From the IMG/VR virus record IMGVR_UViG_3300027733_000070, positions 1-51,172 of that record: a stretch of 51,172 nt of DNA; one strand, given 5' to 3'. The DNA comes from a virus. Both the position numbers and the translations under genes were made by a program. How positions within the stretch are numbered: position 1 is the stretch's first letter; each line of letters opens with the position of its first letter. Below the pieces are notes generated by a model. The model did not search any database and was not told the DNA's origin. It saw only the letters and a program-made list of their open reading frames with translations. Positions 1-51,172 of the stretch are shown here, piece by piece.

Positions 1-235
1 CCTTAACAGGATAATTCTGATAATCAATCAATTCATCAAGAGACCTAACAGATAAATCACATAATTCCTCTAGTTCCTTATCTGATTTAATAATACCAAC
101 ATTTAACGCACTCAGAACACATAGAGCGATTGCTGGAGGATTTTTATCTACGATGACATCCTCATAAAAATATTCATAATTTTGCATATCTTCAGATTCA
201 TTTTCATCAACAAATTCGTATAGTAAATTAGACAT
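1..235 (-). CDS. nrdA-b: Ribonucleotide reductase large subunit, C-terminal piece (NrdA-b), 3' end outside window
   Basis: The 78 visible residues contain IALCVLSALNVG and SVRSLDELIDYQNYP, which match the region of class Ia NrdA immediately after the substrate-site block (E. coli GEIALCTLSAFNLG and VRALDALLDYQDYP). The Cys in IALC corresponds to the second redox Cys (E. coli C462). The ATG at 235 is preceded by GGAG and overlaps the stop of the upstream small ORF by 8 nt, so translation is probably coupled. About 34 N-terminal residues (MSNLLYEF... rich in Asp/Glu) have no NrdA counterpart and form a b-tail. The N-terminal piece of NrdA is a separate gene at 2056-4005. The rest of this protein runs off the left edge. 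It is expected to assemble with NrdA-a to reduce ribonucleotides; that assembly is inferred from the phage Aeh1 precedent. Confidence 0.88.
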   Translation of the reverse strand, partial: MSNLLYEFVDENESEDMQNYEYFYEDVIVDKNPPAIALCVLSALNVGIIKSDKELEELCDLSVRSLDELIDYQNYPVK

Positions 236-446
236 TAAAATCTCCATTTTTTCTAATTATGTGTAAACTTAATCCTGTTTTTTCCGACGCTTCCCTCATA
301 CAATCGTATATTACTTCCTCAATCTTAACTTTTTTACTCCATCCATTTTTTGAACCATAATTTACTCCTCCTGGTTTCCCTTTACTTTCCCATTCATTGT
401 AATCGTATTTTACATTTTTAATATTTGTCAATTTTTCAATGGTCAT
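228..446 (-). CDS. Small ORF resembling the DNA-binding tail of a homing endonuclease
   Basis: This 72-residue ORF starts at the ATG at 446, preceded by GGAGG with 8-nt spacing; the SD and start both lie inside a 69-bp direct repeat. A longer reading begins upstream at 491 but lacks an SD. The C-terminal half (KKVKIEEVIYDCMREASEKT then GLSLHIIRK) looks like the IENR1/NUMOD1 helix-turn-helix modules of intron- and intein-type nucleases, in which an EVIYDCMREA-type stretch is followed by a short HTH. No catalytic HNH or GIY-YIG motif is visible. It is probably what remains of the nuclease that split nrdA. It overlaps the nrdA-b start by 8 nt and may now serve mainly to couple translation. The function is inferred. 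Confidence 0.6.
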   Translation of the reverse strand: MTIEKLTNIKNVKYDYNEWESKGKPGGVNYGSKNGWSKKVKIEEVIYDCMREASEKTGLSLHIIRKNGDFNV

Positions 447-499
447 ATAAAATCCCTCCAGTATCTTTAAGATATTTTTTATATTGTTCAATTTTGTCT
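431..499. repeat. 69-bp direct repeat, copy B
   Basis: It matches 2051-2119 with three mismatches in 69 bases and no gaps. On the minus strand it supplies an SD and the ATG of the small ORF at 228-446. The same bases in copy A encode the end of NrdA-a (DKI.QYKKYLKDTGG.LYDH plus stop). The two copies bracket a 1,551-bp insert (500-2050). Confidence 0.95.
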
Positions 500-504
500 A
501 TCTT

Positions 505-957
505 TTATGCCTTTTTTGGTTGTGTTTTTGTTCTTCTTTTGAATCTACTATTTGGATTATCTTTAAAATATTCTTTTCTATACTCTGTAGGAATCTTTGG
601 AGAATGAATTACACCTTCTCCTCCTTTTGTAATATGTTTCTTTGCATAATTTGGATTCATTACAGTAGAATAATGTTCTCTTCCCCATTTATCAACTGCT
701 CTTTGTCCATCCGTTTTCATTAATTTGCCTGGAGTGTTAATATCTTTTTTAGGAACATTAAATGCAATCACTTTTGTTGGTTTACCGTGTCTTCTGCCAA
801 AACTTTGTGCAATTCCTCTATCAGTTGAAGTATAAACATCTGATGTATTAAATCCAGATTTTTTAATTTTATCCTCAGAAGATGAAGAAGTTCCATGATA
901 CATTTTTACAAACTTCAATCTTTTTGCCTCTGCAATAAATTCTTGAAATGTTTTCAT
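505..957 (-). CDS. Capsid-targeted ADP-ribosyltransferase-like protein
   Basis: The 150-residue protein begins MKTFQEFIAEAK, essentially the T4 capsid-targeting sequence (MKTYQEFIAEA) of internal head proteins, which the gp21 prohead protease cleaves after Glu10. What follows looks like a compact ART fold: YHGTS (His21), VYTSTDRGIAQSFG (Tyr42 and the STD/A..F helix) and GGEGVI (Glu114), giving an H-Y-E triad. The C-terminus is strongly basic (RFKRRTKTQPKKA), suiting DNA packing. By family logic it would be packaged with the DNA and injected to modify host proteins, as T4 Alt is. A late-like box lies 19 bp upstream. It sits between the two nrdA pieces in the repeat-bounded insert. The CTS is very clear; the ART call rests on motifs alone. 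Confidence 0.72.
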   Translation of the reverse strand: MKTFQEFIAEAKRLKFVKMYHGTSSSSEDKIKKSGFNTSDVYTSTDRGIAQSFGRRHGKPTKVIAFNVPKKDINTPGKLMKTDGQRAVDKWGREHYSTVMNPNYAKKHITKGGEGVIHSPKIPTEYRKEYFKDNPNSRFKRRTKTQPKKA

Positions 958-975
958 TTCTTGTTCTTTTTTAAG

Positions 976-983
976 TATTTAGT
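976..983 (-). promoter_or_regulatory. Late-promoter-like box (ACTAAATA)
   Basis: The minus strand reads ACTAAATA 19 bp upstream of the ATG at 957. The same box at nearly the same spacing precedes the other capsid-targeted ORF in the insert and also gp18. Confidence 0.5.
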
Positions 984-1656
984 TTTCATCATATTGAGTA
1001 TGACGATGCAAATGTTTCGGTTCAATTGGCGAAAGTCTTTTTTTACCTTTTTCTTGTTGTTTGCGAGATGGATTTCTTCCTACTTTTGCAAATTGATCGC
1101 CGTCAGAATCTTTTGATCCAAATCCACCTCGTGTAGAATACAATCTTTCTCTACGATTTCTATGTTCATTTCCCCAATCATCTGATCCCGAACTTGAAGG
1201 ACTATTATGTGCTACTGTATTATGAGGTATGCGATGAGATACATGTCTATTCCAAACTCTTTCCGCATCTCTTGCAATTTTAATTTTGTCTCCTTCTGTT
1301 TTTGGAGTTTTATTATGTCCCCATTCTATTGTATTCACATTATTAAACGGAGATCCTAGAGCTTTATATACGTTATATGTAATTCCAGATGGTTTATGGT
1401 GAACATCAATTCCACTAGAATGAGATATTACTTCTACTTCCTTTTCATCTTCACGACTTACATGTGGATTTGGATTTGGATTATCTGCCCCGTGTCTAAC
1501 TTTAGTTAGAGTCAAATTACTTTGTCTTTCTTGTCGTTGTCTATCTTTAAATTTTTTATTACTTGCTTTTTGCATTGGAGTTTTGCCAGAAAGAAGTTTT
1601 TCATCAGGTTCATAATATTTTTCTGCAATATACATAAATTCTTTAAATGTTTTCAT
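979..1656 (-). CDS. Capsid-targeted internal protein of unknown activity
   Basis: The 225-residue protein opens with MKTFKEFMYIAEKYYEP, a T4-type capsid-targeting peptide with a plausible prohead-protease site near Glu13, then a low-complexity Lys/Arg/Gln region (KDRQRQERQ). The central part (SGIDVHHKPSGITYNVYKAL, NNVNTIEWGHNK, DAERVWNRHVSHR) is rich in His, Trp and Arg, suggesting an enzymatic or toxin-like fold. The C-terminal stretch RLYSTRGGFGSK...GDQFAKVGRNP faintly resembles the end of a GNAT fold, too weakly for a call. It lies directly upstream of the ART-like gene in the transcript, with a late-like box 20 bp before its ATG. It is probably packaged and ejected with DNA. I do not recognise its reaction. 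Confidence 0.65.
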   Translation of the reverse strand: MKTFKEFMYIAEKYYEPDEKLLSGKTPMQKASNKKFKDRQRQERQSNLTLTKVRHGADNPNPNPHVSREDEKEVEVISHSSGIDVHHKPSGITYNVYKALGSPFNNVNTIEWGHNKTPKTEGDKIKIARDAERVWNRHVSHRIPHNTVAHNSPSSSGSDDWGNEHRNRRERLYSTRGGFGSKDSDGDQFAKVGRNPSRKQQEKGKKRLSPIEPKHLHRHTQYDEN

Positions 1657-1659
1657 TTC

Positions 1660-2055
1660 TTACTTTGCTTTTAGGTATTTAGTTTTTTCATAACTCCATC
1701 TATACCCCTTACAATGGTTAAATTTTCCTTCACAGGTATATTTAATGTTGGAAGGATTTGTTCCTACAAATTTAGAGACATCACTAATAGATTGAAACTC
1801 TCTTAAAAAGTTTCCTTCAATGTCATACTGAAATACTTTAATTCTTTTTACATTTGGATTATTTTTGAGTGTTTGAGATGTCTTACTTTTGCTTTCTTCT
1901 TTGTGAGATTTTCCAGCAAATCCACAAGGAGATGGTTGCCCCTTTCTCATTTTACTCCATTTTTCTTTTTGTTCTTCTGTATGTGTTTGATTGTAGAATG
2001 GATTTTCTTCTCCAACAAATTTTCCTTTTCTTTTTATACTGCTATTAATAATTTT
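1660..2055 (-). pseudogene. Decayed homing endonuclease, NUMOD3 and NUMOD1 modules only
   Basis: The reading frame is open from just after the NrdA-a stop codon and is the same frame as nrdA-a. It encodes two NUMOD3-like repeats (GEENPFYNQTHTEEQKEKWS and GFAGKSHKEESKSKTSQTLK) followed by a NUMOD1 module (VFQYDIEGNFLREFQSISDV, then KYTCEGKFNHCKGYRWSYEK). These modules are the DNA-reading tails of GIY-YIG and HNH homing endonucleases. No catalytic domain remains. The only internal ATG (1950) falls between modules, so expression is doubtful. I read it as the remnant of the nuclease whose insertion broke nrdA. Confidence 0.75.
1676..1683 (-). promoter_or_regulatory. Late-promoter-like box (ACTAAATA)
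   Basis: The minus strand reads ACTAAATA 20 bp upstream of the ATG at 1656, almost the same arrangement as at 976-983. Confidence 0.5.
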
Positions 2056-2119
2056 TCAATGGTCATATAAAACCCCCCCAGTATCTTTAAGATATTTTTT
2101 ATATTGTCCAATTTTGTCT
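2051..2119. repeat. 69-bp direct repeat, copy A
   Basis: It matches 431-499 at 66 of 69 positions. It covers the last ~21 codons and the stop of nrdA-a. Its internal ATG (MTIEKL on the minus strand) now leads to a 10-residue dead end, whereas in copy B the same start opens a 72-residue ORF. The SD has decayed to a run of G. Confidence 0.95.
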
Positions 2120-4005
2120 TTGGAAACTTTCACTCTTCGTTTTTCAGTTTTTCCTATGTCATCAATATGTTGAATTGGTTTGGTTGGTAGAGTAATCTCT
2201 AGGCAATTATGAACCAGAATATTATTTGCAAAGAAGTTATGTGTTCCTTCTACAGTAATATCATAAACTGGTATTTCTTCTTCAAGATATTCAATTATAA
2301 GAAATGTACCGACAGTATGACTTTCCCCAACATAAACTAATTGGTCATTTGGAGTTAAATCTTTTGCCATCACATATCCACGATTTTTTGTGAATACTTT
2401 ATGCTCTGGTGTCACTACAATACTCTTACCACTTTCTTCATCAGTAATTCTCATTACCTTTGCTTTTGGAGAAGTTTCCGCAAATGCAGTTATTGGTGCC
2501 CATCTCTGCTCACCAGTTTCAATGTCATATGAAAGAACTTCAAGATTTTTGATAAACATATTATTTAAAAATTCATCCAAATCTTTAATTTTAATTTCAG
2601 TCATTTTATCATTACAATCACCGACAATAGTATTGTCCGAATAATCGTCAAGATTATGTTTGATCCAAATCAAAGTGTTTCCAGCAACACAAAGGTTACT
2701 CATATCAATTTTATCCTTAAAAGAAGAATGAGAATTGGAATGATCGATATTCATAATATAAATCCTACCAGTTTCATTCCTCTCATTTAAGAGCGAAAGA
2801 ATGAGTTCTTGAGCCTTAACAGTTTTTTTCTTAATGGACGAATCTTTCTCATATTGAACGTATAAAGAGTCAAATAAATCTGTTCCGAAAGAATCATATA
2901 GTCCAGGTACATCATGTGGGGAGAATAATGTAATTTCACCATCTTTAATAAATCGCTCATAAAAAATCTTAGATATACAAATTCCATAATCAATATTCCT
3001 TACTCGGTTCTCATCATTTCCTTTATTATTTTTAAGAACCAAAACACTTTCAATTTCCTGGTGCCAGATAGGAACATAAGCAGTCATACTAGCCTTACGA
3101 ATACCACCCTGGTGGCATGATTCTAGTGAAGATTGGAATTTCTTTAGAAATGGAATCAATCCAGTAGAAATAACTTCACCGTTACGAATCTTACTACCAA
3201 TTCCACGTACACTACCAACATTTAATCCAATTCCAGCTCTACCAGCAATATACCTAATCATTGCCCCATCAGTAGCAATAATACTTTCCAATGAATCTCC
3301 ACAAGAAAGTAAGGTGCAAGAAGCAAATTGTTTTAGTTGAGTTCTAACTCCAGCCATAATTGGAGTAGGAATATTAATCTTATGTTTACTAATTGCATCA
3401 TAATATTTCTTAACATATCCCATTCTTGTTTCCTTAGGATATCTAGAGAATATAACAAGAGATATCATAATATACATGAACTGAGGACATTCATATAAAT
3501 TACCATTACTCCTATCTTGTATGAGATACTTATCCACTACTTGACGCAATCCAGCATAAGTGAATAGATAATCTCTACCGTGATCGATGTAACTATTTGC
3601 CTTATCTATTTCTTCCTTTGAGTAATGATTATAAATCTCGTTGTCATATAATCCAAGAGATATACAAGAATTAATTTGGTCCTCAAGATGAGGCATATCA
3701 ATTCTTCCACCATAAATGCTTTTACGAATTGAGAATAGAAGAAGTCTTGCCGCAACAAATTGATAATTTGTATTTTCTAGTGATATCAAATCACTAGCAC
3801 TCTTAATAAGAATCTCCTGAATCTCAGACGTAGTAATTCCATCATAAAATTGAATACCCGATGCCATCTCTACTTGAGACGCAGAAACCCCAGAGAGACC
3901 CTTACAAGACTCACCAACCATATTATGAAGTTTTTCTAGATTCAGGTCTTCTATTGACCCATTTCTTTTAGTTACCTTAATTCTACTACTCATTTTCTTT
4001 TCCAT
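2056..4005 (-). CDS. nrdA-a: Ribonucleotide reductase large subunit, N-terminal piece (NrdA-a), with in-frame intein
   Basis: The protein starts at 4005 (or the ATG at 3993) and overlaps the primase stop. Residues up to SNL match T4/E. coli NrdA, including the ATP-cone-like N-terminus, LPTPIMAGVRT, the first redox Cys in FASCTLLSCGDS, and GIRKASMTAYVPIWH. A 162-residue mini-intein follows SNL; after splicing the next residue is the thiyl-radical Cys of SNLCLEITLPTKPI. Instead of continuing to GEIALC, the chain ends with a foreign ~32-residue a-tail (KTEKRRVKVSKDKIGQYKKY and onward) and a stop. The rest of NrdA is a separate gene at 1-235. After splicing this piece would be about 487 residues. 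Activity requires both protein splicing and assembly with NrdA-b (inferred). Confidence 0.93.
   Translation of the reverse strand: MEKKMSSRIKVTKRNGSIEDLNLEKLHNMVGESCKGLSGVSASQVEMASGIQFYDGITTSEIQEILIKSASDLISLENTNYQFVAARLLLFSIRKSIYGGRIDMPHLEDQINSCISLGLYDNEIYNHYSKEEIDKANSYIDHGRDYLFTYAGLRQVVDKYLIQDRSNGNLYECPQFMYIMISLVIFSRYPKETRMGYVKKYYDAISKHKINIPTPIMAGVRTQLKQFASCTLLSCGDSLESIIATDGAMIRYIAGRAGIGLNVGSVRGIGSKIRNGEVISTGLIPFLKKFQSSLESCHQGGIRKASMTAYVPIWHQEIESVLVLKNNKGNDENRVRNIDYGICISKIFYERFIKDGEITLFSPHDVPGLYDSFGTDLFDSLYVQYEKDSSIKKKTVKAQELILSLLNERNETGRIYIMNIDHSNSHSSFKDKIDMSNLCVAGNTLIWIKHNLDDYSDNTIVGDCNDKMTEIKIKDLDEFLNNMFIKNLEVLSYDIETGEQRWAPITAFAETSPKAKVMRITDEESGKSIVVTPEHKVFTKNRGYVMAKDLTPNDQLVYVGESHTVGTFLIIEYLEEEIPVYDITVEGTHNFFANNILVHNCLEITLPTKPIQHIDDIGKTEKRRVKVSKDKIGQYKKYLKDTGGVLYDH
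2206..2691 (-). mobile_element. Mini-intein in NrdA (162 aa) at the catalytic Cys
   Basis: Boundaries are clear. Block A begins CVAGNTLIW directly after SNL, block B is VVTPEHKVFT (TxxH), block F is VYDITVEGTHNFFANN, and block G is ILVHN followed by Cys. The +1 Cys is the radical-carrying residue of the SNLC motif. There is no LAGLIDADG or HNH domain, so it cannot home by itself. All residues needed for splicing (Cys1, block-B His, His-Asn, Cys+1) are present. Confidence 0.93.
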
Positions 4006-32937: not shown

Positions 32938-34440
32938 GTGAATATTGTAGAGATTATTAAAAATAATTGGGATAAAAATAAATTCATATCATTATCCCTT
33001 AATAAGAATATAAAGTTACAAATTGAGAATGAAACATCGTTTTTAAATTCTTATTATGCTTCTATTCCTCTAAGGACTAGGGCTTATGTGATAATTAATG
33101 ATATTACCGAGAAGACACTACCAAGATGTAAATGTGGATGTGAAAAAGTAGCGGCTATTAATAAAACATATTCAGACCAAGGATTTAGAGAATATTCTGG
33201 ACCGGATTGTTCTAGAAAAGATAAAACAATCAACAAGGATATTCTAAAAAAACTTGAGGATAAAGAATGGTTGTACGAACAAAGAATAGTTCAAAAAAAA
33301 GCAATAGAATTAATTGGAACTGAATTAGGAATATCTCCCATACCAGTTACTAAGTGGTTAAGAATACATAAAATTGATATAATGCTTGATGCTAGAAGAA
33401 GAAATAGTCTTGCCACTAATATATTAAATGATAAGGCTAAATTGGAAGAATTATATGGTTCTGGAATGACCTGTGAGCAAATTGCTGAAACTCTTAGTAC
33501 TACTAAATCAACAGTTGCAAGATGGTTGTCTTTTTATGACATTGAGACAAGACCATCTAATTCTTATGAACGAAAAATCAATAAAGTTAGTAATGAGGAG
33601 AAGTCTCTCTTAGAATTTATTGTTGGTATATATTCAGGTGAGATAATATCATCAAATCGTTCTATATTAAATGGTAAAGAATTGGACATATATTTACCAG
33701 AAAAAAATATTGCTATAGAATATAATGGATTATATTCTCATTATTATAGACCCTGGGAATCTAGTGAATCACTTATTAAAGATTCGGCATATCATTTAAA
33801 TAAGACACTACAATGTGAATCTGAAGGAATACAATTAATTCATTTATTTAGTGATGAGTGGTTAATTAAAAGAAGTATCGTAGAGTCTATTCTAAAAAGT
33901 AAATTAGGAATTAATGAAAGGATATATGCACGAAAATGTAAAATTGATGAGGTGGATACTCATACCAAAAATATATTTCTAAATTCCTATCATATTCAAG
34001 GGGAGGATAAGAGTAAGATTAAACTTTGTCTAAAATATAATGAGGAAATATTATGTGTGATGACATTTACTAATTCTAGATTTAATAAAAATTATAAATG
34101 GGAACTTTCTAGATTCTGTACTAAAAGTGGATATAATGTTATTGGTGGATTTACTAAATTATTATCACACTTCAGAAAGAGTAACATTGGGTCTATTATT
34201 TCTTATGCAGATCGTAGATATTCTAATGGTAATGTTTATAGAACCAATGGATTTGATTTGATTCATATTAATTCACCATCTTATTATTATGTTGATAAAA
34301 ATTGTTTAGAGAGACACAATCGGATGAAATTCCAGAAGAAGTATATTGATGCTTATGATTGTACTGAATATGAGAAAGCTAGAGAATTAGGATTCAATAA
34401 GATATTTGATTGTGGTTCTTATGCTTTCGGATTATCATAA
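32938..34440 (+). CDS. Free-standing VSR/EDxHD-type homing endonuclease
   Basis: The 500-residue protein starts with GTG (SD GGGAGG, 5-nt spacing). The N-terminal third has a cluster CKCGCEKVAAINKTYSDQGF, two helix-turn-helix segments (WLYEQRIVQKKAIELIGTEL, SGMTCEQIAETLSTTKSTVA) and a nuclease core ELDIYLPEKNIAIEYNGLYS, HY, KDSAYHLNKTLQCESEGIQL, IHLFSDEW, which follow the EDxHD/VSR fold of phage homing enzymes such as I-Bth0305I. It is the only gene on its strand, between virion genes at 32301 and gp23, with its own promoter, as expected for a mobile insertion. It contains no obvious frameshift and looks intact. Confidence 0.86.
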   Translation: MNIVEIIKNNWDKNKFISLSLNKNIKLQIENETSFLNSYYASIPLRTRAYVIINDITEKTLPRCKCGCEKVAAINKTYSDQGFREYSGPDCSRKDKTINKDILKKLEDKEWLYEQRIVQKKAIELIGTELGISPIPVTKWLRIHKIDIMLDARRRNSLATNILNDKAKLEELYGSGMTCEQIAETLSTTKSTVARWLSFYDIETRPSNSYERKINKVSNEEKSLLEFIVGIYSGEIISSNRSILNGKELDIYLPEKNIAIEYNGLYSHYYRPWESSESLIKDSAYHLNKTLQCESEGIQLIHLFSDEWLIKRSIVESILKSKLGINERIYARKCKIDEVDTHTKNIFLNSYHIQGEDKSKIKLCLKYNEEILCVMTFTNSRFNKNYKWELSRFCTKSGYNVIGGFTKLLSHFRKSNIGSIISYADRRYSNGNVYRTNGFDLIHINSPSYYYVDKNCLERHNRMKFQKKYIDAYDCTEYEKARELGFNKIFDCGSYAFGLS

Positions 34441-37206: not shown

Positions 37207-38961
37207 TTAAAGCATACTTAAATAATTTTCAAAGTGAAGAAGTTTTCTTTCTTCAGTTAGTCTATTATTAAAAGCATCCTTTTCAATTTGCTTCTTCATA
37301 TTTGAAGCAATATATTCTTGTTTATTAGTATCATATAACCAATTTACTCCTTCCATAATTCCTTCTACAAATGCCGTCTGGCAACTTGGGTCGTGAACTA
37401 TATCAGCAGTGGCCAATTTAAAGTCTTTGGCTACCATTGAGTATCCATATTGAGTAGGAATTAAACTACCCACTCCACGAGTGGATATTCCAAGTTTAAT
37501 TCCAGCTTCATAAAGATTTTGGGCGATTTTACCCATTGGGGTATCTAGAAGTTTAGCCTTACCAATAAATCTATTGCCGTCTTGTTTAAGGCTTTCAATT
37601 ATATGTGATACTCTGTCTAGATTTATAGATGGTCCACAATTACCAGTCCAGTAAGTATATCCATTTTGTTCAACCATAAAGTTAGTATTCTCAACTTGAA
37701 TGCAATATACTTTATTATTCCAATCTTCCTCCAAGATTTTTAAAAATCTCGCATCTAGATATATTCCTTTTGTAGATAAGAATCTACAGAAGTATAGTTT
37801 CGATTTAGTTGTAGCTTTAATAGTCCTATCTGCAAAGGTATAGTCCTTCTCACATAGCTCATCAAATCTTGAAATTCCGAGTCCAGCAATAACTGCTATG
37901 TGTGAAATATCATCAATCAATTTTTTAGAAGTGCTGAATACATCGCAACGAGAATATTTCTCATCAATACTACCTCTACCATCCCCAAGCACAAAGTAAT
38001 CAATAAAGATTCTAGCTGCCTCTGAATTTAAGTTCCATATTACATCTTTCGGGACATATTTATGATAACAATCTCCAATAGGATATAAATATTCACCAAG
38101 TCGCCTATCATAACAAGACCAATCTATTCTATTTCCATACTTAGATTCATTCCACTCCAATCCATCTAGTGAATATAAAACCTCCCGAATTGCATCGGCT
38201 TTATGTCCTTCATTTTGACAGATACTAATGGAATATGAGCCATTACTTTTTTTAGAGCAACTTCCTTCTGATAAATAAATACCCAAAAATGCAACAAAGC
38301 TACTAAATTCTAACTCAAGATTGGAAAGATATTTTAAAGTTTTATCAGTAATTGCGGTAATAGTATTGGATTTTGGGATAGTATACACATCGGGATGAGT
38401 TGTATTCACCCCTAATGAATATTTTGGGATATACCACTTGGATAACTTATTTTGCCCACTCAAGTCTTCAAATATTTCTTGAGCGGTAACGAATTTATAT
38501 TCATTATGATTTCTTGAATTGTAGATTAAAAATCTATGATCGGGAGTTACTTTAGTATCAATTCCCCTATTCTTTAAATTATACAATATTCCTTTATGGG
38601 AATTGACGACTACCTTTTTAATTGGGTGTAGCTCTACTTCTTTCGTGGTGGGATTCAATGTGTAAACTAACTCACCTTCCTTTGAATCTTGAATATGCTT
38701 CCACCCATCATCTGCAGTTAATAGTTTAGCATCACCACTTAAGCAGGGATGACCAAGTTCACCTAAGGCGCGATTTTCATTTACATAAGTTTTCACATAA
38801 TCATTTACGGCATTTTCTAATACATCTCTACTATATTGTCTTTTATTTCTATTTGTGGAATTTGCTTCCATAAAAATACCTTGTATATAAAAGGTCTTTT
38901 TACCATTCCTTTCTTCAGTTAGAACCTTAATGTCCTGTGCTTCTTCTGTTATCAGTTTCAT
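37207..38961 (-). CDS. 21: Prohead protease (T4 gp21) with in-frame LAGLIDADG intein
   Basis: The 584-residue ORF codes for a 215-residue gp21 once the 369-residue intein is removed. Extein parts are MKLITEEAQDIKVLTEERNG, NRNKRQYSRDVLENAVNDY and RALGELGHP (catalytic His region), then CGPSINLDRVSHIIESLKQD, AGIKLGISTRGVGSL (Ser nucleophile region), and the usual C-terminus. The protease cleaves after (L/I)xE motifs in gp22, gp23 and internal proteins, so splicing gates head maturation. It lies between gp22 and a small virion gene and starts with the stop overlap of that gene. Confidence 0.94.
   Translation of the reverse strand: MKLITEEAQDIKVLTEERNGKKTFYIQGIFMEANSTNRNKRQYSRDVLENAVNDYVKTYVNENRALGELGHPCLSGDAKLLTADDGWKHIQDSKEGELVYTLNPTTKEVELHPIKKVVVNSHKGILYNLKNRGIDTKVTPDHRFLIYNSRNHNEYKFVTAQEIFEDLSGQNKLSKWYIPKYSLGVNTTHPDVYTIPKSNTITAITDKTLKYLSNLELEFSSFVAFLGIYLSEGSCSKKSNGSYSISICQNEGHKADAIREVLYSLDGLEWNESKYGNRIDWSCYDRRLGEYLYPIGDCYHKYVPKDVIWNLNSEAARIFIDYFVLGDGRGSIDEKYSRCDVFSTSKKLIDDISHIAVIAGLGISRFDELCEKDYTFADRTIKATTKSKLYFCRFLSTKGIYLDARFLKILEEDWNNKVYCIQVENTNFMVEQNGYTYWTGNCGPSINLDRVSHIIESLKQDGNRFIGKAKLLDTPMGKIAQNLYEAGIKLGISTRGVGSLIPTQYGYSMVAKDFKLATADIVHDPSCQTAFVEGIMEGVNWLYDTNKQEYIASNMKKQIEKDAFNNRLTEERKLLHFENYLSML
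37639..38745 (-). mobile_element. LAGLIDADG intein in gp21 (369 aa)
   Basis: Block A is CLSGDAKLLTADDG after GHP, block B is DTKVTPDHRFLIY, and two LAGLIDADG-like helices are visible (FLGIYLSEGS and YFVLGDGRGS). Block F is VYCIQVENTNFMVEQNG and block G is YWTGN followed by Cys. The penultimate His of most inteins is replaced by Gly, so Asn cyclisation must be His-independent. The nuclease motifs have an E/D in each helix and look complete, so homing could be active. Confidence 0.92.
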
Positions 38962-43953: not shown

Positions 43954-46683
43954 TTAGATTTCTCCACCCTTAGGCATTTCTATTGCCTTTGTATTGGCTT
44001 CTGGGTCCATTGGTACTTTACCTAAATCCCCTTCTTGTCCAGTAAAATCTGGCATTGGTTGTCCAGTAGTTGGGTCAATTGGTATAGATGGGTCTGGAAT
44101 AACTCCATCTTCAATTTCCTTTTTCATTAATTCGTCTTGGTCAATAATCTCTTGATCTGTTTGACGAAGAATATGTCGTCTAACGTAATCTTGTGAATAA
44201 TATTTACCAATATATGGTTCAGCAGCCGAAACTAGATTTAATCTATCTGTAAGAAGTTCAGAATCTTTTAGTTCAGCAAAGTGATTATCATATAAGAAGT
44301 CATACTGAATATGTTCATTCATTTTATCCCAGTCTTCTGGGGTTATTATATTCTTAAGAAGTAATTGAGTTCTTAACATATCACTAAACATATTAGAAAA
44401 TCTCTTTCTTAATCTAGCAACAAATTTACTAAACTTTACCTCATCTCTTAGAATTTCTGAAGAACGACCAAGATTAAATCCACCATCACCATCTATTCTA
44501 GAAGATGGAACATTTAGGGATTTATAAAGCTTCTTCTGGAAGTAAGCCAAATCCGTAATTTCACCTAGATTACTATTTTTTGTAAATACTCCAGATGACA
44601 AAGCAAATGTATGATAATTATGAAAAATTTCATCGGAGTCAATTGTAAGTGTCCCAACTTCAATTTCATTAGGTAGATATTCAATGGATGTAATGTTATG
44701 ATTAAATAAACTACATTCAGACGCATTTTTTCTAGATTCCTCAGACCACCCATCAGATAATCTTTGTCTAAACCACTCATTATCTTGTAATTTAATTTGC
44801 AATGCCTCAGATACCCCTTCTAAATTAGAAATGGATGTATTAATTTTTTTGGCATATTCCTCATCAGAAATATTATTAAAATGATTAATACTACCATTTC
44901 TAATTTTTTCAATTTGATCTATTCTTTCCTCTTCAGATAAATTATTCCAGAAAGCCTTTGAATTTTGTGATATTCTTGAGCAATATTTTTCATATTCAAT
45001 TGGATTATTTTTTAATTCAATTAATTTTTCTTTTGCCGCCAAAGTCCACTTCAATTGTTCCTCAATAGAGAATCCAATAGATTTATGATATAGTATATGA
45101 TCCAAAGAATTCATAAAGCATAAATTTTCTGGGGAGTTGTCAAACCGATTTAGATTTATATGGTGTATTGTATTCTTATTTTCATCGTTTTGTTCAAATA
45201 CATTATCTTCACAAATAATTTCCTTAAATGTATTAGCAACTAATCTGTGTGTATAAATCCATTTTTTACTTTCATTATCATAAATCATTTCATATTCATT
45301 TGATCCTTTTTTTATTTCTTTAGTTTTTTTGTAAAATGGTATCATACTTTGACCAACTTCTAAATCTTTAGCCTCAACAAATCCAACATTATAAATTGGG
45401 AATTTGTGGTCGTAAGTACAAGTAATACTTTCTCCATTATCTAGAGTTATTTTAATTACTTTAGCACTCTTTTGTGTTACTCCAGCCCAACTAATTAATC
45501 CTGGTTCAATTTTTCCCGTTGTTGGGTGACAGGAATACGCCCACAACTTATTTCCAGTATTCAATTCAGTTTCTATATCTTTAATGGATAATTCTCTACC
45601 ATCAAGAAGCGGAACCTTTGTACTCATCTCAAGACATCCACCAGGTAAGGTGGTAACCTCGGTACCTCTACCACCTTCTCTTCTTGGTAACCAGAAGTCC
45701 TCCATCATACTCATAAACTTCTTATCATCTTTAATTTCGCCTGTTGCGCTATCATAAACCTGTTTATTACGATAACGCATCATAACATCTTTAAGATATT
45801 GTTCTGCTTTCTGCTTCGGAAGATTACCAACATCAATATAAAAAATTCTTCTTTCTGATGCTCTTGATAGTCTATAAATTACTAAACTATCCTCAATCAT
45901 TCTTAGTTGATTTAATGATTTAATTGCCTTATGTAAAAATGATAGAATAGTTCCTTTATTTAAATCTACTAATCCAGAAGTACAATAAGTGATGGAATCC
46001 TTAGACATCTTAATTCCTTTCTCGCTACCTCCACTCATTGCGGATGGAGTTCCTACTGGATATTGAGTTTTTGGATTATAAACAAAGTATTCTTCAATTT
46101 CTGGAAACTCAAAGTCCATTGGGTCTTGGCTTCCATATATTAAAGTTTTTCTTGCTCCATCATTCTTTACTTTCTTCTGTTGCCTGATATGGCGTATTTT
46201 TAAAGAATCAATATATCTTAGTTCTTGTATTCCCTCGTGTGGCTTCTTCATATCAATTACTTTATGATAATAAAGTCTCCCATCTATAAACCAATTTCTA
46301 TAGATTTCGTGGGATTTCTTATCAAAATCCAATAATTCTAGTATATATCTAAATTCATCTCGTATCTTCTGTTTGATTCCATCACTAGCATTCAAATTGG
46401 ATAATTCAATCTGAATAGGAGAATCGTTTGTATCGGATACAATTGCCTCATTAACAACGTCTTCAATAGCACTATCCACTTCTGGATGTAGTGCCATTTC
46501 TCTATATCTTTTAATTAAATCAAATTCAGTTTTATAAACACCCTCAATATCTACATAAGACCCAAAGAAGCCACTAGTTAAATAATAATCACTCCCGTCC
46601 TGATTATTAGGCGGAACGGGAGAAATAATAGATGGGGATTGCTTCTCAGTATCCTCAATAGAAAATCCAAACAATTTAGCCAT
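43954..46683 (-). CDS. 20: Portal protein (T4 gp20) with in-frame HNH intein
   Basis: The 909-residue ORF gives a 555-residue portal after removing the 354-residue intein. Extein signatures include MALHPEVDSAIEDVVNEAIV, WFIDGRLYYHKVID, IYRLSRASERRIFYIDVGNL, FWLPRREGGRGTEVTTLPGG, then SNLGEITDLAYFQKKLYKSL and SRIDGDGGFNLGRSSEILRD. The junction TLPGG|SNLGEI corresponds to the strongly conserved TLPGGQNLGEI stretch of portal proteins. It forms the dodecameric portal, binds terminase gp17 (next gene set) and nucleates prohead assembly. A GATAAATA box lies 26 bp upstream. Confidence 0.95.
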   Translation of the reverse strand: MAKLFGFSIEDTEKQSPSIISPVPPNNQDGSDYYLTSGFFGSYVDIEGVYKTEFDLIKRYREMALHPEVDSAIEDVVNEAIVSDTNDSPIQIELSNLNASDGIKQKIRDEFRYILELLDFDKKSHEIYRNWFIDGRLYYHKVIDMKKPHEGIQELRYIDSLKIRHIRQQKKVKNDGARKTLIYGSQDPMDFEFPEIEEYFVYNPKTQYPVGTPSAMSGGSEKGIKMSKDSITYCTSGLVDLNKGTILSFLHKAIKSLNQLRMIEDSLVIYRLSRASERRIFYIDVGNLPKQKAEQYLKDVMMRYRNKQVYDSATGEIKDDKKFMSMMEDFWLPRREGGRGTEVTTLPGGCLEMSTKVPLLDGRELSIKDIETELNTGNKLWAYSCHPTTGKIEPGLISWAGVTQKSAKVIKITLDNGESITCTYDHKFPIYNVGFVEAKDLEVGQSMIPFYKKTKEIKKGSNEYEMIYDNESKKWIYTHRLVANTFKEIICEDNVFEQNDENKNTIHHINLNRFDNSPENLCFMNSLDHILYHKSIGFSIEEQLKWTLAAKEKLIELKNNPIEYEKYCSRISQNSKAFWNNLSEEERIDQIEKIRNGSINHFNNISDEEYAKKINTSISNLEGVSEALQIKLQDNEWFRQRLSDGWSEESRKNASECSLFNHNITSIEYLPNEIEVGTLTIDSDEIFHNYHTFALSSGVFTKNSNLGEITDLAYFQKKLYKSLNVPSSRIDGDGGFNLGRSSEILRDEVKFSKFVARLRKRFSNMFSDMLRTQLLLKNIITPEDWDKMNEHIQYDFLYDNHFAELKDSELLTDRLNLVSAAEPYIGKYYSQDYVRRHILRQTDQEIIDQDELMKKEIEDGVIPDPSIPIDPTTGQPMPDFTGQEGDLGKVPMDPEANTKAIEMPKGGEI
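44575..45636 (-). mobile_element. HNH-type intein in gp20 (354 aa)
   Basis: Block A is CLEMSTKVPLLDG after LPGG and block B is SITCTYDHKFPIYN. A homing core carries an HNH motif (THRLVANTFKE, IHHINLNRFDNSPENLCFMN, DHILYH). A long helical DNA-binding region with KAFWNNLSEEERIDQIEKIR-type modules follows. Block F/G is IFHNYHTFALSSG ... VFTKN before Ser+1. The penultimate residue is Lys, not His. The extein +1 residue is Ser where Q is usual in relatives, so the insertion also changed the first residue. Confidence 0.9.
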
Positions 46684-49604: not shown

Positions 49605-50813
49605 TTATAGATATTCCCACATATATTCCATTCCACCATACTCAGAACTATCTGATGCATACCATCTATCACCATCATTATCTACAAATGTTTTTTCATT
49701 ATCAAATGTAGTAATAAACCCAAACGGAGCCATATCATTCTCTAGTTGTTCTTGACTTTCTTCATATATTTTCTTTCTTACATCATTATCAGTCATTTCC
49801 TTGAAATAATCCTGACAAATCAACCACGCAAATAATACTAAACACATACATAAATCATCGTGATTTCCATCTTCCGCCTCAAATGTATTGTATTTTTGTA
49901 CAAACGTAGTTAATTCCGCTATGATTTCATAATCATTGAATATTAACTTCTCTTCTTCTATAATTGCTTTTAAATTGATACATCCAACTTTCTTAACTGT
50001 CTTGGACATCTTGACTCCCATTTGAGTCTTCTTTCCAGAAAATCCTTGACCAACAATTTGACCAGCTCTTCCTCGCATACTACACATAAGAAGATTTGAA
50101 TATTCTAAGTCATAATGAAGTGCTGTTGCTACTTGGTCTCCAACGTCATTTATTTCACAAAGTACGTGAGCATCATTATATAATCTACCAGCTTCTCTGA
50201 CGTTATAGGGAAACATCATCGGTTTAATCTCATTATTTCTATACTTTCCAACAACTCTATATGGAAATGATGTTATATCAAATATAACAAATGCAGAATA
50301 ATCAATTTCTACTCCTCTAGCAACGTCTACTGTAATTACATATTGGCTATCTTCTAATGGTTCTTCATATATGTCTAATCCAGCTTGAGACCTAATTGGC
50401 CGTGATTGAGTAAATGTTGCTAATTTAGCTCCAGAAATTAGTGTATCTACGGACCCAAGAAACTCACAATTGTGTGATACAATATTATTACTATAATATA
50501 GATGATGAGTTCCTGAATTTACAATATCATATAACTCAATTTCTTTGTTTATTATTTTCTTACTTATTAAAAAACAACCACCAGTTTTAGTATAAATCTC
50601 TGTGGTTTTATCTAAGTCTTTTGCTTTTATTATTCCTTCAATAGTGGATAATGGATGGTCTAAAGAACACTTTAGTTCCTCTCCATTAGTAAATTGTAAA
50701 TGCGCATATTTGTCCTTTGTTATCTTATTAACACCATAAAAATCCTCATATCCATAAGGCGTAAGGATTTTTATGTTCTTATTGTTTAATACTACTGTTT
50801 CTGGTAAATTCAT
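49605..50813 (-). CDS. 17-C: Terminase large subunit (T4 gp17), C-terminal piece, with IntC half of a split intein
   Basis: The ORF starts at ATG 50813 (50834 also in frame). The first ~115 residues are IntC; after VSHN comes CEFLGSVDTLISGAKLATFT, the gp17 extein. The nuclease domain is complete: TVDVARGVEIDYSAF (first Asp), VLCEINDVGDQVA (Glu), DGNHDDLCMCLVLF (second Asp). The ATPase half with Walker A/B lies beyond the right edge, on the ORF ending at 51125. Trans-splicing must join them to make the packaging motor. It is followed by the gp18 promoter. Confidence 0.93.
   Translation of the reverse strand: MNLPETVVLNNKNIKILTPYGYEDFYGVNKITKDKYAHLQFTNGEELKCSLDHPLSTIEGIIKAKDLDKTTEIYTKTGGCFLISKKIINKEIELYDIVNSGTHHLYYSNNIVSHNCEFLGSVDTLISGAKLATFTQSRPIRSQAGLDIYEEPLEDSQYVITVDVARGVEIDYSAFVIFDITSFPYRVVGKYRNNEIKPMMFPYNVREAGRLYNDAHVLCEINDVGDQVATALHYDLEYSNLLMCSMRGRAGQIVGQGFSGKKTQMGVKMSKTVKKVGCINLKAIIEEEKLIFNDYEIIAELTTFVQKYNTFEAEDGNHDDLCMCLVLFAWLICQDYFKEMTDNDVRKKIYEESQEQLENDMAPFGFITTFDNEKTFVDNDGDRWYASDSSEYGGMEYMWEYL
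50469..50813 (-). mobile_element. IntC of an atypically split TerL intein (AceL-TerL type)
   Basis: The 115-residue half contains KNIKILTPYGYEDFYGV, block B EELKCSLDHPL (xxxH), FLISKK, ELYDIVNSGTHHLYYSNN (block F) and IVSHN|C (block G and Cys+1). The split point is therefore before block B, close to the N-terminus, which is the rare AceL-TerL layout; the sequence is similar to that IntC (NIKIL.P.G...F.G, INHP or LDHP, VVSHN/IVSHN, CEFLGS extein). Splicing residues are intact. Confidence 0.9.
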
Positions 50814-51124
50814 TCTGTTAGGAACTGTATACATCTATTTAAGGTTTCTTGTGGGTCATTTTTATACTCATCATCAAATATGTGTATAATATCAAATCCT
50901 TTATGTATTAGAAACACATCTTTAATGTTTTCTTTTTCTTTATCAGATGCCAATACCTCCCATCAAATTCAATAATGTTATTATTGAATACGAAATCAAT
51001 ATTATATTTAATCTTATTTAATTTTGGATAATCCTTAAATTTCTCTTTATTAGTGTTCCGTAAAACCGCGAAGTCTTTAGCTTCGCAGATGTAAGGAACA
51101 AACTTTACTAAATACTTATGTAGT
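50810..51124 (-). pseudogene. VSR-like homing endonuclease between the intein halves, frame-shifted
   Basis: Two overlapping frames encode one nuclease-like protein: VPYICEAKDFAVLRNTNKEK... IDFVFNNNIIEFDGRYWH, then after one missing base SDKEKENIKDVFLIHKGFDI and IHIFDDEYKNDPQETLNRCI up to the stop at 50810, which overlaps the IntC start (ATGA). The D..F..N.IIEFDG.YWH and K-G-(F/Y)-D-I-I-x-I motifs are VSR-fold type. No start codon is visible upstream. The shift at ~50960 and the missing start suggest it is dead. Confidence 0.78.
51061..51086 (-). other. Hairpin after the IntN stop, possible terminator or start-blocking stem
   Basis: The minus strand reads GCGAAG-CTAAAGA-CTTCGC followed by GGTTTT. 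It is a perfect 6-bp GC-rich stem. It is located inside the endonuclease remnant and could end the transcript or hide its start. Confidence 0.4.
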
Positions 51125-51172
51125 TTAACCTATTTCACATAAAAATGTATAGAGCATTTCGTTATAGATTTT
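51125..51172 (-). CDS. 17-N: C-terminal end of gp17-N plus IntN (partial, runs off window)
   Basis: The last 15 residues before the stop at 51125 read KIYNEMLYTFLCEIG, which align with the end of the short IntN of AceL-TerL (KI..E.LY..L pattern). The frame reaches the right edge. If correct, IntN is very short (around 25-35 residues) and preceded by the terminase ATPase domain outside the window. Only 45 coding bases are visible, so this is an inference from the downstream IntC. Confidence 0.55.
   Translation of the reverse strand, partial: KIYNEMLYTFLCEIG

What the first reader, a model, noticed from the sequence alone, without database searches (positions are those of the whole stretch)
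49605..51172. Fractured terminase gene with an AceL-TerL-type atypically split intein and a frame-shifted VSR-like nuclease between the halves
IntC (50469-50813) carries blocks B, F and G, ends in VSHN|CEFLGS and starts directly on the stop of a VSR-like ORF; the ORF to the right ends KIYNEMLYTFLCEIG, fitting a very short IntN. Established: AceL-TerL has a ~25-residue IntN in TerL, and fractured genes with VSR-fold nucleases are known from environmental phage data. The new points here are the decayed nuclease with the intein still intact in its catalytic residues, and the full C-extein context in a contig with portal and sheath.
Basis: partly seen in the sequence, partly recalled or inferred. 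Interest (0 to 1): 0.88.

Follow-up and report, generated by a model that had tools for sequence, protein, structure and literature searches.

The report
Split terminase gene with dead nuclease
A phage DNA-packaging gene is broken in two, and its halves are predicted to be rejoined as proteins by a split intein; the selfish DNA-cutting gene that sits in the break has died here, and relatives show that this nuclease is lost again and again while the gene stays broken.

Summary
Confirmed: the contig end carries the C-terminal part of a T4-like terminase (TerL) behind an intact 115-aa intein C-part, preceded by a wrecked Vsr-like nuclease and the last 15 codons of an ORF that matches the end of related IntN parts. 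The window is the whole IMG/VR record, so the TerL N-half and the first IntN residue lie off the contig. Relatives settle the reading: the site is FE|CEFLGS, empty in most alleles, and 36 of 40 related loci start IntN with Ser, not Cys. This makes it GOS-TerL-like (IntN 37/IntC 115, Ser1/Cys+1 in the literature); AceL/Cat-like Cys1 inteins, with GIY-YIG nucleases, form a separate clade. The nuclease lost about 270 N-terminal residues, shifted frame and has no start codon; it died recently. Nuclease presence changed at least 8 (best tree 11) times among 41 related alleles, often leaving scars; all 22 nuclease-less relatives with a readable N-half keep a stop between the halves. The window is a new member of a known kind. 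The surrounding series (repeated nuclease loss, re-fused inteins, terminases in three pieces) is more interesting. Splicing is inferred, not shown.

The parts
51125..51172 (-). 3' end of the TerL N-half ORF: C-terminal tail of IntN (KIYNEMLYTFLCEIG, TAA stop 51127-51125); cut by the contig end
   Evidence: frame; profile match, 3/1862 null tails as high; relatives' IntN ends IG-x-[LI]-Y-x-x-[LM]
50810..51110 (-). Remnant of a Vsr/EDxHD-like homing endonuclease: N-terminal HTH part missing, -1 frameshift near 50950, no start codon for the first frame; stop TGA 50812-50810 overlaps the IntC ATG. Homology to intact copies begins at about 51069
   Evidence: tblastn with intact relatives; no ORF with a start in the first frame; DUF559 match of the joined read-through; intact relatives
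51068..51086 (-). Stable RNA hairpin GCGAAG-CTAAAGA-CTTCGC inside the remnant, found only in this contig and its twin
   Evidence: folded stretch z = -3.1
50469..50813 (-). IntC, 115 aa, with conserved H in block B, D in block F and terminal HN; predicted HINT fold
   Evidence: alignment; CatC 6dsl, E 9e-18; AlphaFold pLDDT 92.6; 6dsl top Foldseek hit
49605..50468 (-). C-extein: TerL C-terminal nuclease domain starting at Cys+1 (CEFLGSVDTL...), stop included
   Evidence: Terminase_6C PF17289, 1.3e-10; PHROG terminase large subunit; empty alleles ...FE|CEFLGS

Best explanation
The window ends in the downstream half of a TerL gene fractured by an atypically split, GOS-TerL-like intein inserted at FE|CEFLGS. 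The upstream gene (off the contig) encodes the TerL ATPase part followed by a short IntN, probably starting with Ser1; the downstream gene encodes a 115-aa IntC followed by the TerL nuclease domain from Cys+1. The two products associate, the IntN strand completes the HINT fold, and trans-splicing (Ser1 acyl shift, transfer to Cys+1, Asn cyclisation) yields full-length TerL for DNA packaging. The gap once held a free-standing HTH-Vsr homing endonuclease that spread the split intein; here it has been destroyed by an N-terminal deletion and a frameshift, so this is a no longer self-mobile but still functional split intein. Shown: gene layout, insertion site, intact IntC residues, nuclease wreck, relatives' IntN. 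Inferred: Ser1 in this phage, splicing, former homing, translational coupling through the ATGA overlap.
For: IntC matches solved atypical split intein CatC in sequence and predicted fold. Catalytic positions are conserved in 14 relatives. Empty alleles read FKVEFE|CEFLGS or WRQEFE|CEFLGS. N-halves with IntN and stop sit upstream of the same kind of IntC in 40 relatives of this clade. Intact nucleases of about 320-390 aa occupy the same gap in 19 loci, with HTH and DUF559/MTES_1575 domains. IntC pN 0.13-0.16 against pS 0.62-0.79. IntN-like tail at the contig end.
Against: IntN itself is seen only as 15 codons; Ser1 and the TerL ATPase half are off the contig. The DNA between the IntN tail and 51069 could not be aligned to relatives better than chance, so the deletion junction is undefined. 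No splicing test exists for this pair.
Confidence: 0.9

Rival explanations
1. The nuclease is intact in the phage and only looks broken: the frameshift and truncation come from assembly error at the contig end.
For: The remnant is still conserved at amino-acid level (pN 0.20-0.26, pS about 0.7, like intact pairs), and both contigs stop within 4 bases of each other, which suggests an assembly fork there.
Against: The same frameshift is in a second contig with 3 differences over 6700 bases; the shift is not in a long homopolymer; an IntN-like end and stop sit directly upstream; other relatives carry similar deletions. The two contigs may share a sample, so full independence is not shown.
Confidence: 0.08
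2. It is an AceL-TerL-type intein with Cys1.
For: Same TerL site; CatC is the closest solved structure; L067, which joins the window weakly (87/74) in the DNA tree, has Cys1.
Against: Own clade apart from the AceL/Cat-like set; IntC 115 aa against 104; Ser1 in 36 of 40 related loci; Vsr instead of GIY-YIG nuclease.
Confidence: 0.12
3. The terL C-half is a dead gene fragment and packaging uses another terminase.
For: The nuclease next to it is dead; the N-half is not on the contig.
Against: Open reading frame of 409 codons with conserved intein and TerL residues and low pN/pS; no second TerL in the window; genes around it are ordinary head and tail genes.
Confidence: 0.04
4. The nuclease piece is still made through -1 frameshifting at GAAAAAG and is a working small nuclease.
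For: A G AAA AAG run lies just after the break and joining the frames keeps homologous length.
Against: The first frame has no start codon; the HTH part is gone; in an ungapped reading the invariant Glu of LN-x-E-K is replaced.
Confidence: 0.03

Closest known systems
GOS-TerL split intein (Bachmann and Mootz 2015, as described in PMC11766414)
   Same: TerL host gene; atypical split; IntC 115 aa; Cys+1; relatives L003-L007 have an IntN of exactly 37 aa with Ser1
   Different: Sequence of GOS-TerL was not available here for direct comparison; this window has a nuclease remnant in the gap and its own Ser1 is not readable
AceL-TerL / Cat atypical split inteins
   Same: TerL, short IntN, long IntC; CatC (6dsl) is the closest solved structure
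   Different: Cys1, IntC about 104 aa, 36-37% identity between the clades, GIY-YIG nucleases in that clade
Fractured genes with Vsr-like nucleases (Dassa et al. 2009; known from memory and from citing papers, the paper itself not held)
   Same: Conserved phage enzyme broken by a split intein with a free-standing Vsr-like nuclease in the gap
   Different: Nuclease is a wreck here; the series shows repeated nuclease loss with the split kept
I-Bth0305I (EDxHD homing endonuclease, 3r3p)
   Same: Catalytic domain fold of the intact relative (Foldseek prob 0.99, but E 0.06)
   Different: HTH-rich N-terminal part in the relatives; in the window only the C-terminal catalytic piece survives, in two frames

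Membership tests
Atypically split intein (GOS-TerL/AceL/Cat kind) | IntC of about 100-115 aa with blocks B, F, G and terminal HN before a nucleophile | tested here: met
Atypically split intein (GOS-TerL/AceL/Cat kind) | Short IntN (25-40 aa) on a separate ORF ending in a stop | tested here: inconclusive
   Window shows only the tail; 40 relatives of the clade meet it
GOS-TerL type | Ser1 with Cys+1, IntC 115 aa | tested here: inconclusive
   Cys+1 and 115 aa met; Ser1 in 36 of 40 relatives by alignment register, not readable in the window
AceL-TerL type | Cys1, IntC about 104 aa, grouping with CatC-like IntC | tested here: not met
   Length and clade not met; Cys1 not readable
Fractured gene with split intein and free-standing nuclease | Nuclease ORF between the two intein halves | tested here: inconclusive
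   Present as a broken remnant only; intact in 19 relatives
Vsr/EDxHD homing endonuclease | DUF559/MTES_1575/Vsr-like catalytic domain with conserved E, D, H | tested here: inconclusive
   Met for intact relatives; the window remnant keeps D and H but the invariant Glu is not recognisable
Split intein | Protein trans-splicing | not testable with these tools
   needs expression of both halves

The most novel reading that the evidence does not exclude
Gene fracture by split inteins in phage terminases is a reversible cycle rather than an end state: a homing nuclease gene sits between the halves, is repeatedly lost by internal deletion that leaves scars, and the locus then either persists as a solo split intein or is re-fused into one ORF (L185 re-fused through the nuclease's own zinc-finger scar; L159, L160 and L171 continuous next to fractured and solo-split sisters). 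In some phages two such elements stack, so that TerL is made from three polypeptides.
Probability: 0.45. Interest if true: 0.65.

Novelty: new member of a known kind. Interest (0 to 1): 0.47.

Why it matters
The locus and its relatives give a dense natural series at one site in one essential gene: empty, nuclease-bearing split, wrecked nuclease, solo split and re-fused. This makes the order of events in split-intein evolution testable, explains why solo split inteins exist without a homing gene, and supplies dozens of new Ser1/Cys+1 short-IntN pairs of a kind used in protein labelling.

Tried and rejected
Extending the contig: a 30-base exact search of viral contigs found only the near-identical contig that ends at the same place. 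Aligning the DNA between the IntN tail and 51069 to intact nucleases: no better than shuffles, so the deletion junction was not placed. The hairpin as an intrinsic terminator or known RNA: no Rfam match, and the terminator scan does not list it. T4-type late promoter TATAAATA: no site near the locus and fewer in the window than chance. The idea that remnants keep an in-frame relay ORF for translational coupling: only about 3 of 7 scars are in frame, near what chance gives. Functional -1 frameshifting: rejected for want of a start codon. Bacterial genomes: 16 candidate stretches, only three weak matches. The joined two-frame nuclease reading with an added start was made only for a family search.

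Full report
Observation. The window is one complete IMG/VR record of 51172 bases; its right end is the contig end. Reading the minus strand from that end: 15 codons KIYNEMLYTFLCEIG and a TAA at 51127-51125; a stretch similar to Vsr-like nucleases spread over two frames; an IntC of 115 codons (50813-50469); and the TerL C-extein to 49605. IntC begins on an ATG overlapping the TGA of the nuclease frame (ATGA). Pfam finds Terminase_6C in the C-extein (E 1.3e-10), and PHROGs names it terminase large subunit.

The intein. Over 14 relatives the IntC keeps the block B His, block F Asp and terminal His-Asn; Cys+1 follows. The nearest solved sequence is CatC, the consensus atypical split intein (6dsl, E 9e-18). 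An AlphaFold model of the window's IntC has mean pLDDT 92.6, and 6dsl is its best structural match (TM 0.81). Silent change far exceeds amino-acid change against relatives (pS 0.62-0.79, pN 0.13-0.16).

The insertion site. A search with the C-extein brought 80 loci, most of them uninterrupted TerL genes that read ...FKVEFE or ...WRQEFE directly followed by CEFLGSVDTL. The intein therefore sits between Glu and Cys+1, and the IntN of relatives begins right after FE. Of the 40 loci of the window's clade with a readable N-half, 36 have Ser at IntN position 1 by alignment register and four (L067, L125-L127) have Cys. IntN is 28-43 residues long and has a block IG-x-[LI]-Y-x-x-[LM] near its end. The window's KIYNEM scores 11.0 against a profile of 19 such blocks (members 11.8-18.9), which 3 of 1862 random ORF tails reach. 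The TerL N-half is absent from the window, with the C-half as positive control; a 30-base search for an overlapping contig found only the twin contig.

Which family. In the IntC tree the window lies in a 41-row clade (99/98) that carries Vsr-like nucleases; AceL/Cat-like inteins with Cys1 and GIY-YIG nucleases form the other main group at the same site. A review gives GOS-TerL as IntN 37, IntC 115, Ser1/Cys+1 and AceL-TerL as 25, 104, Cys1/Cys+1 (PMC11766414). L003-L007 have exactly a 37-aa Ser1 IntN and a 115-aa IntC. The window is thus best described as GOS-TerL-like; the sequence of GOS-TerL itself was not available, so identity with it was not tested.

The nuclease. Intact relatives encode about 319-389 aa with HTH segments and a C-terminal DUF559/MTES_1575 domain. 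The predicted fold of one matches the catalytic domain of I-Bth0305I with probability 0.99 but a weak E-value of 0.06. The window keeps only the last 90 or so residues, in two frames (51069-50911 and 50947-50813); the first frame has no start codon. The same break is in the twin contig, which differs at 3 of 6700 bases, all in the sheath gene. The remnant's pN (0.20-0.26 to L011, L014 and L121) is no higher than between intact copies (0.27-0.29), so the inactivation is recent.

The series. Among relatives, nuclease-less alleles come in several forms. Some keep one or both ends of the nuclease ORF as scars (L013/L115, L023/L129, L027/L145, L125-L127, L132-L135, L140). L145 has an 8-base repeat AATTGGAA at its deletion ends, and L130 differs from the nuclease-bearing L134 by the loss of roughly 1.1 kb in otherwise 95% identical DNA. 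Others have no trace left (L003-L007, L010, L067). On the IntC DNA tree nuclease presence changes 11 times, at least 8 on well-supported branches; scars show that at least several of these changes are losses. In all 22 nuclease-less loci of this clade with a readable N-half a stop still separates the halves. In the Cys1 group some alleles are continuous: L159, L160, L171 and L150. L162 is a solo split that differs from nuclease-bearing L156 by a 581-base deletion, and L160 and L171 lack a 600-base segment relative to fractured sisters. At another TerL site (PRQTGK|...|STT), L185 is one ORF that still contains the nuclease's N-terminal zinc-finger piece, which shows that it was re-fused from a fractured form; it lacks 925 bases plus two single bases relative to L184.

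Mechanism and limits. The supported model is trans-splicing of two TerL halves by a split intein whose mobility gene has died. Layout, site, residues and the wreck are shown. Splicing, Ser1 in this phage and past homing are inferred. Dassa et al. 2009 and Bachmann and Mootz 2015 could not be read, so how far the decay series is already described is uncertain; nine literature searches of the held library found no description of it.

Verdict. The interpretation needs correcting from AceL-type with Cys1 to GOS-TerL-like with probable Ser1. The locus is a new member of a known kind; the wider cycle is the part worth following.

Noticed in passing
L187:219-2311 and on to about 3500; L188:1222-3314 and on; L005/L184:1097-3562; L014/L190: TerL fractured at two sites, so that the protein must come from three polypeptides joined by two different split inteins. 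L187 and L188 carry a nuclease-bearing split intein at the Walker A site and a GIY-YIG nuclease at the FE|C site; L005 has a nuclease only at the first site; L014 shows the first site only in part.
   Followed up: partly
L185:3303-4466: Walker A site intein of TerL re-fused into one ORF through a remnant of its former nuclease (zinc-finger stretch LLDCGKSIKSRSHIPRHVKISHG).
   Followed up: yes
L159, L160, L171, L150: Continuous mini-inteins at the same TerL site as the split ones, mostly sisters of GIY-YIG-bearing fractured alleles.
   Followed up: partly
window 2-4005 (-): NrdA is also in pieces: residues 1-450 and an intein (about 2640-2200), then about 2 kb with a NUMOD-like ORF (1660-1950) and other genes, and NrdA-like sequence (residues 448-497) resumes at 151-2 at the left contig end.
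   Followed up: partly
window 43954-46683 (-) and 37207-38961 (-): Portal protein and prohead protease each carry an intein, so at least four proteins of this phage are intein-interrupted.
   Followed up: no
window 32938-34440 (+): Free-standing homing endonuclease (PHROG 3339, E 3.7e-97), on the opposite strand to its neighbours.
   Followed up: no
window 51052-51094 (-): Strong RNA hairpin inside the nuclease remnant (two stacked stems, z = -3.1), unique to this contig and its twin; origin unknown.
   Followed up: partly
L181 (Vibrio phage VP-1), L182 (Vibrio phage 1.244.A), L180 (Escherichia phage phiS): Cultured phages with split terminase inteins; in the two Vibrio phages the C-part precedes CSFLGSVG or CSFRGSVG (the window's site), and the phiS N-half carries a nuclease-like C-terminal part; phiS uses another site (SHN|CAFIQNW).
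   Followed up: partly
L008:2549-4876: TerL N-half with two further continuous inteins before the split one, so three intein sites in one gene.
   Followed up: no
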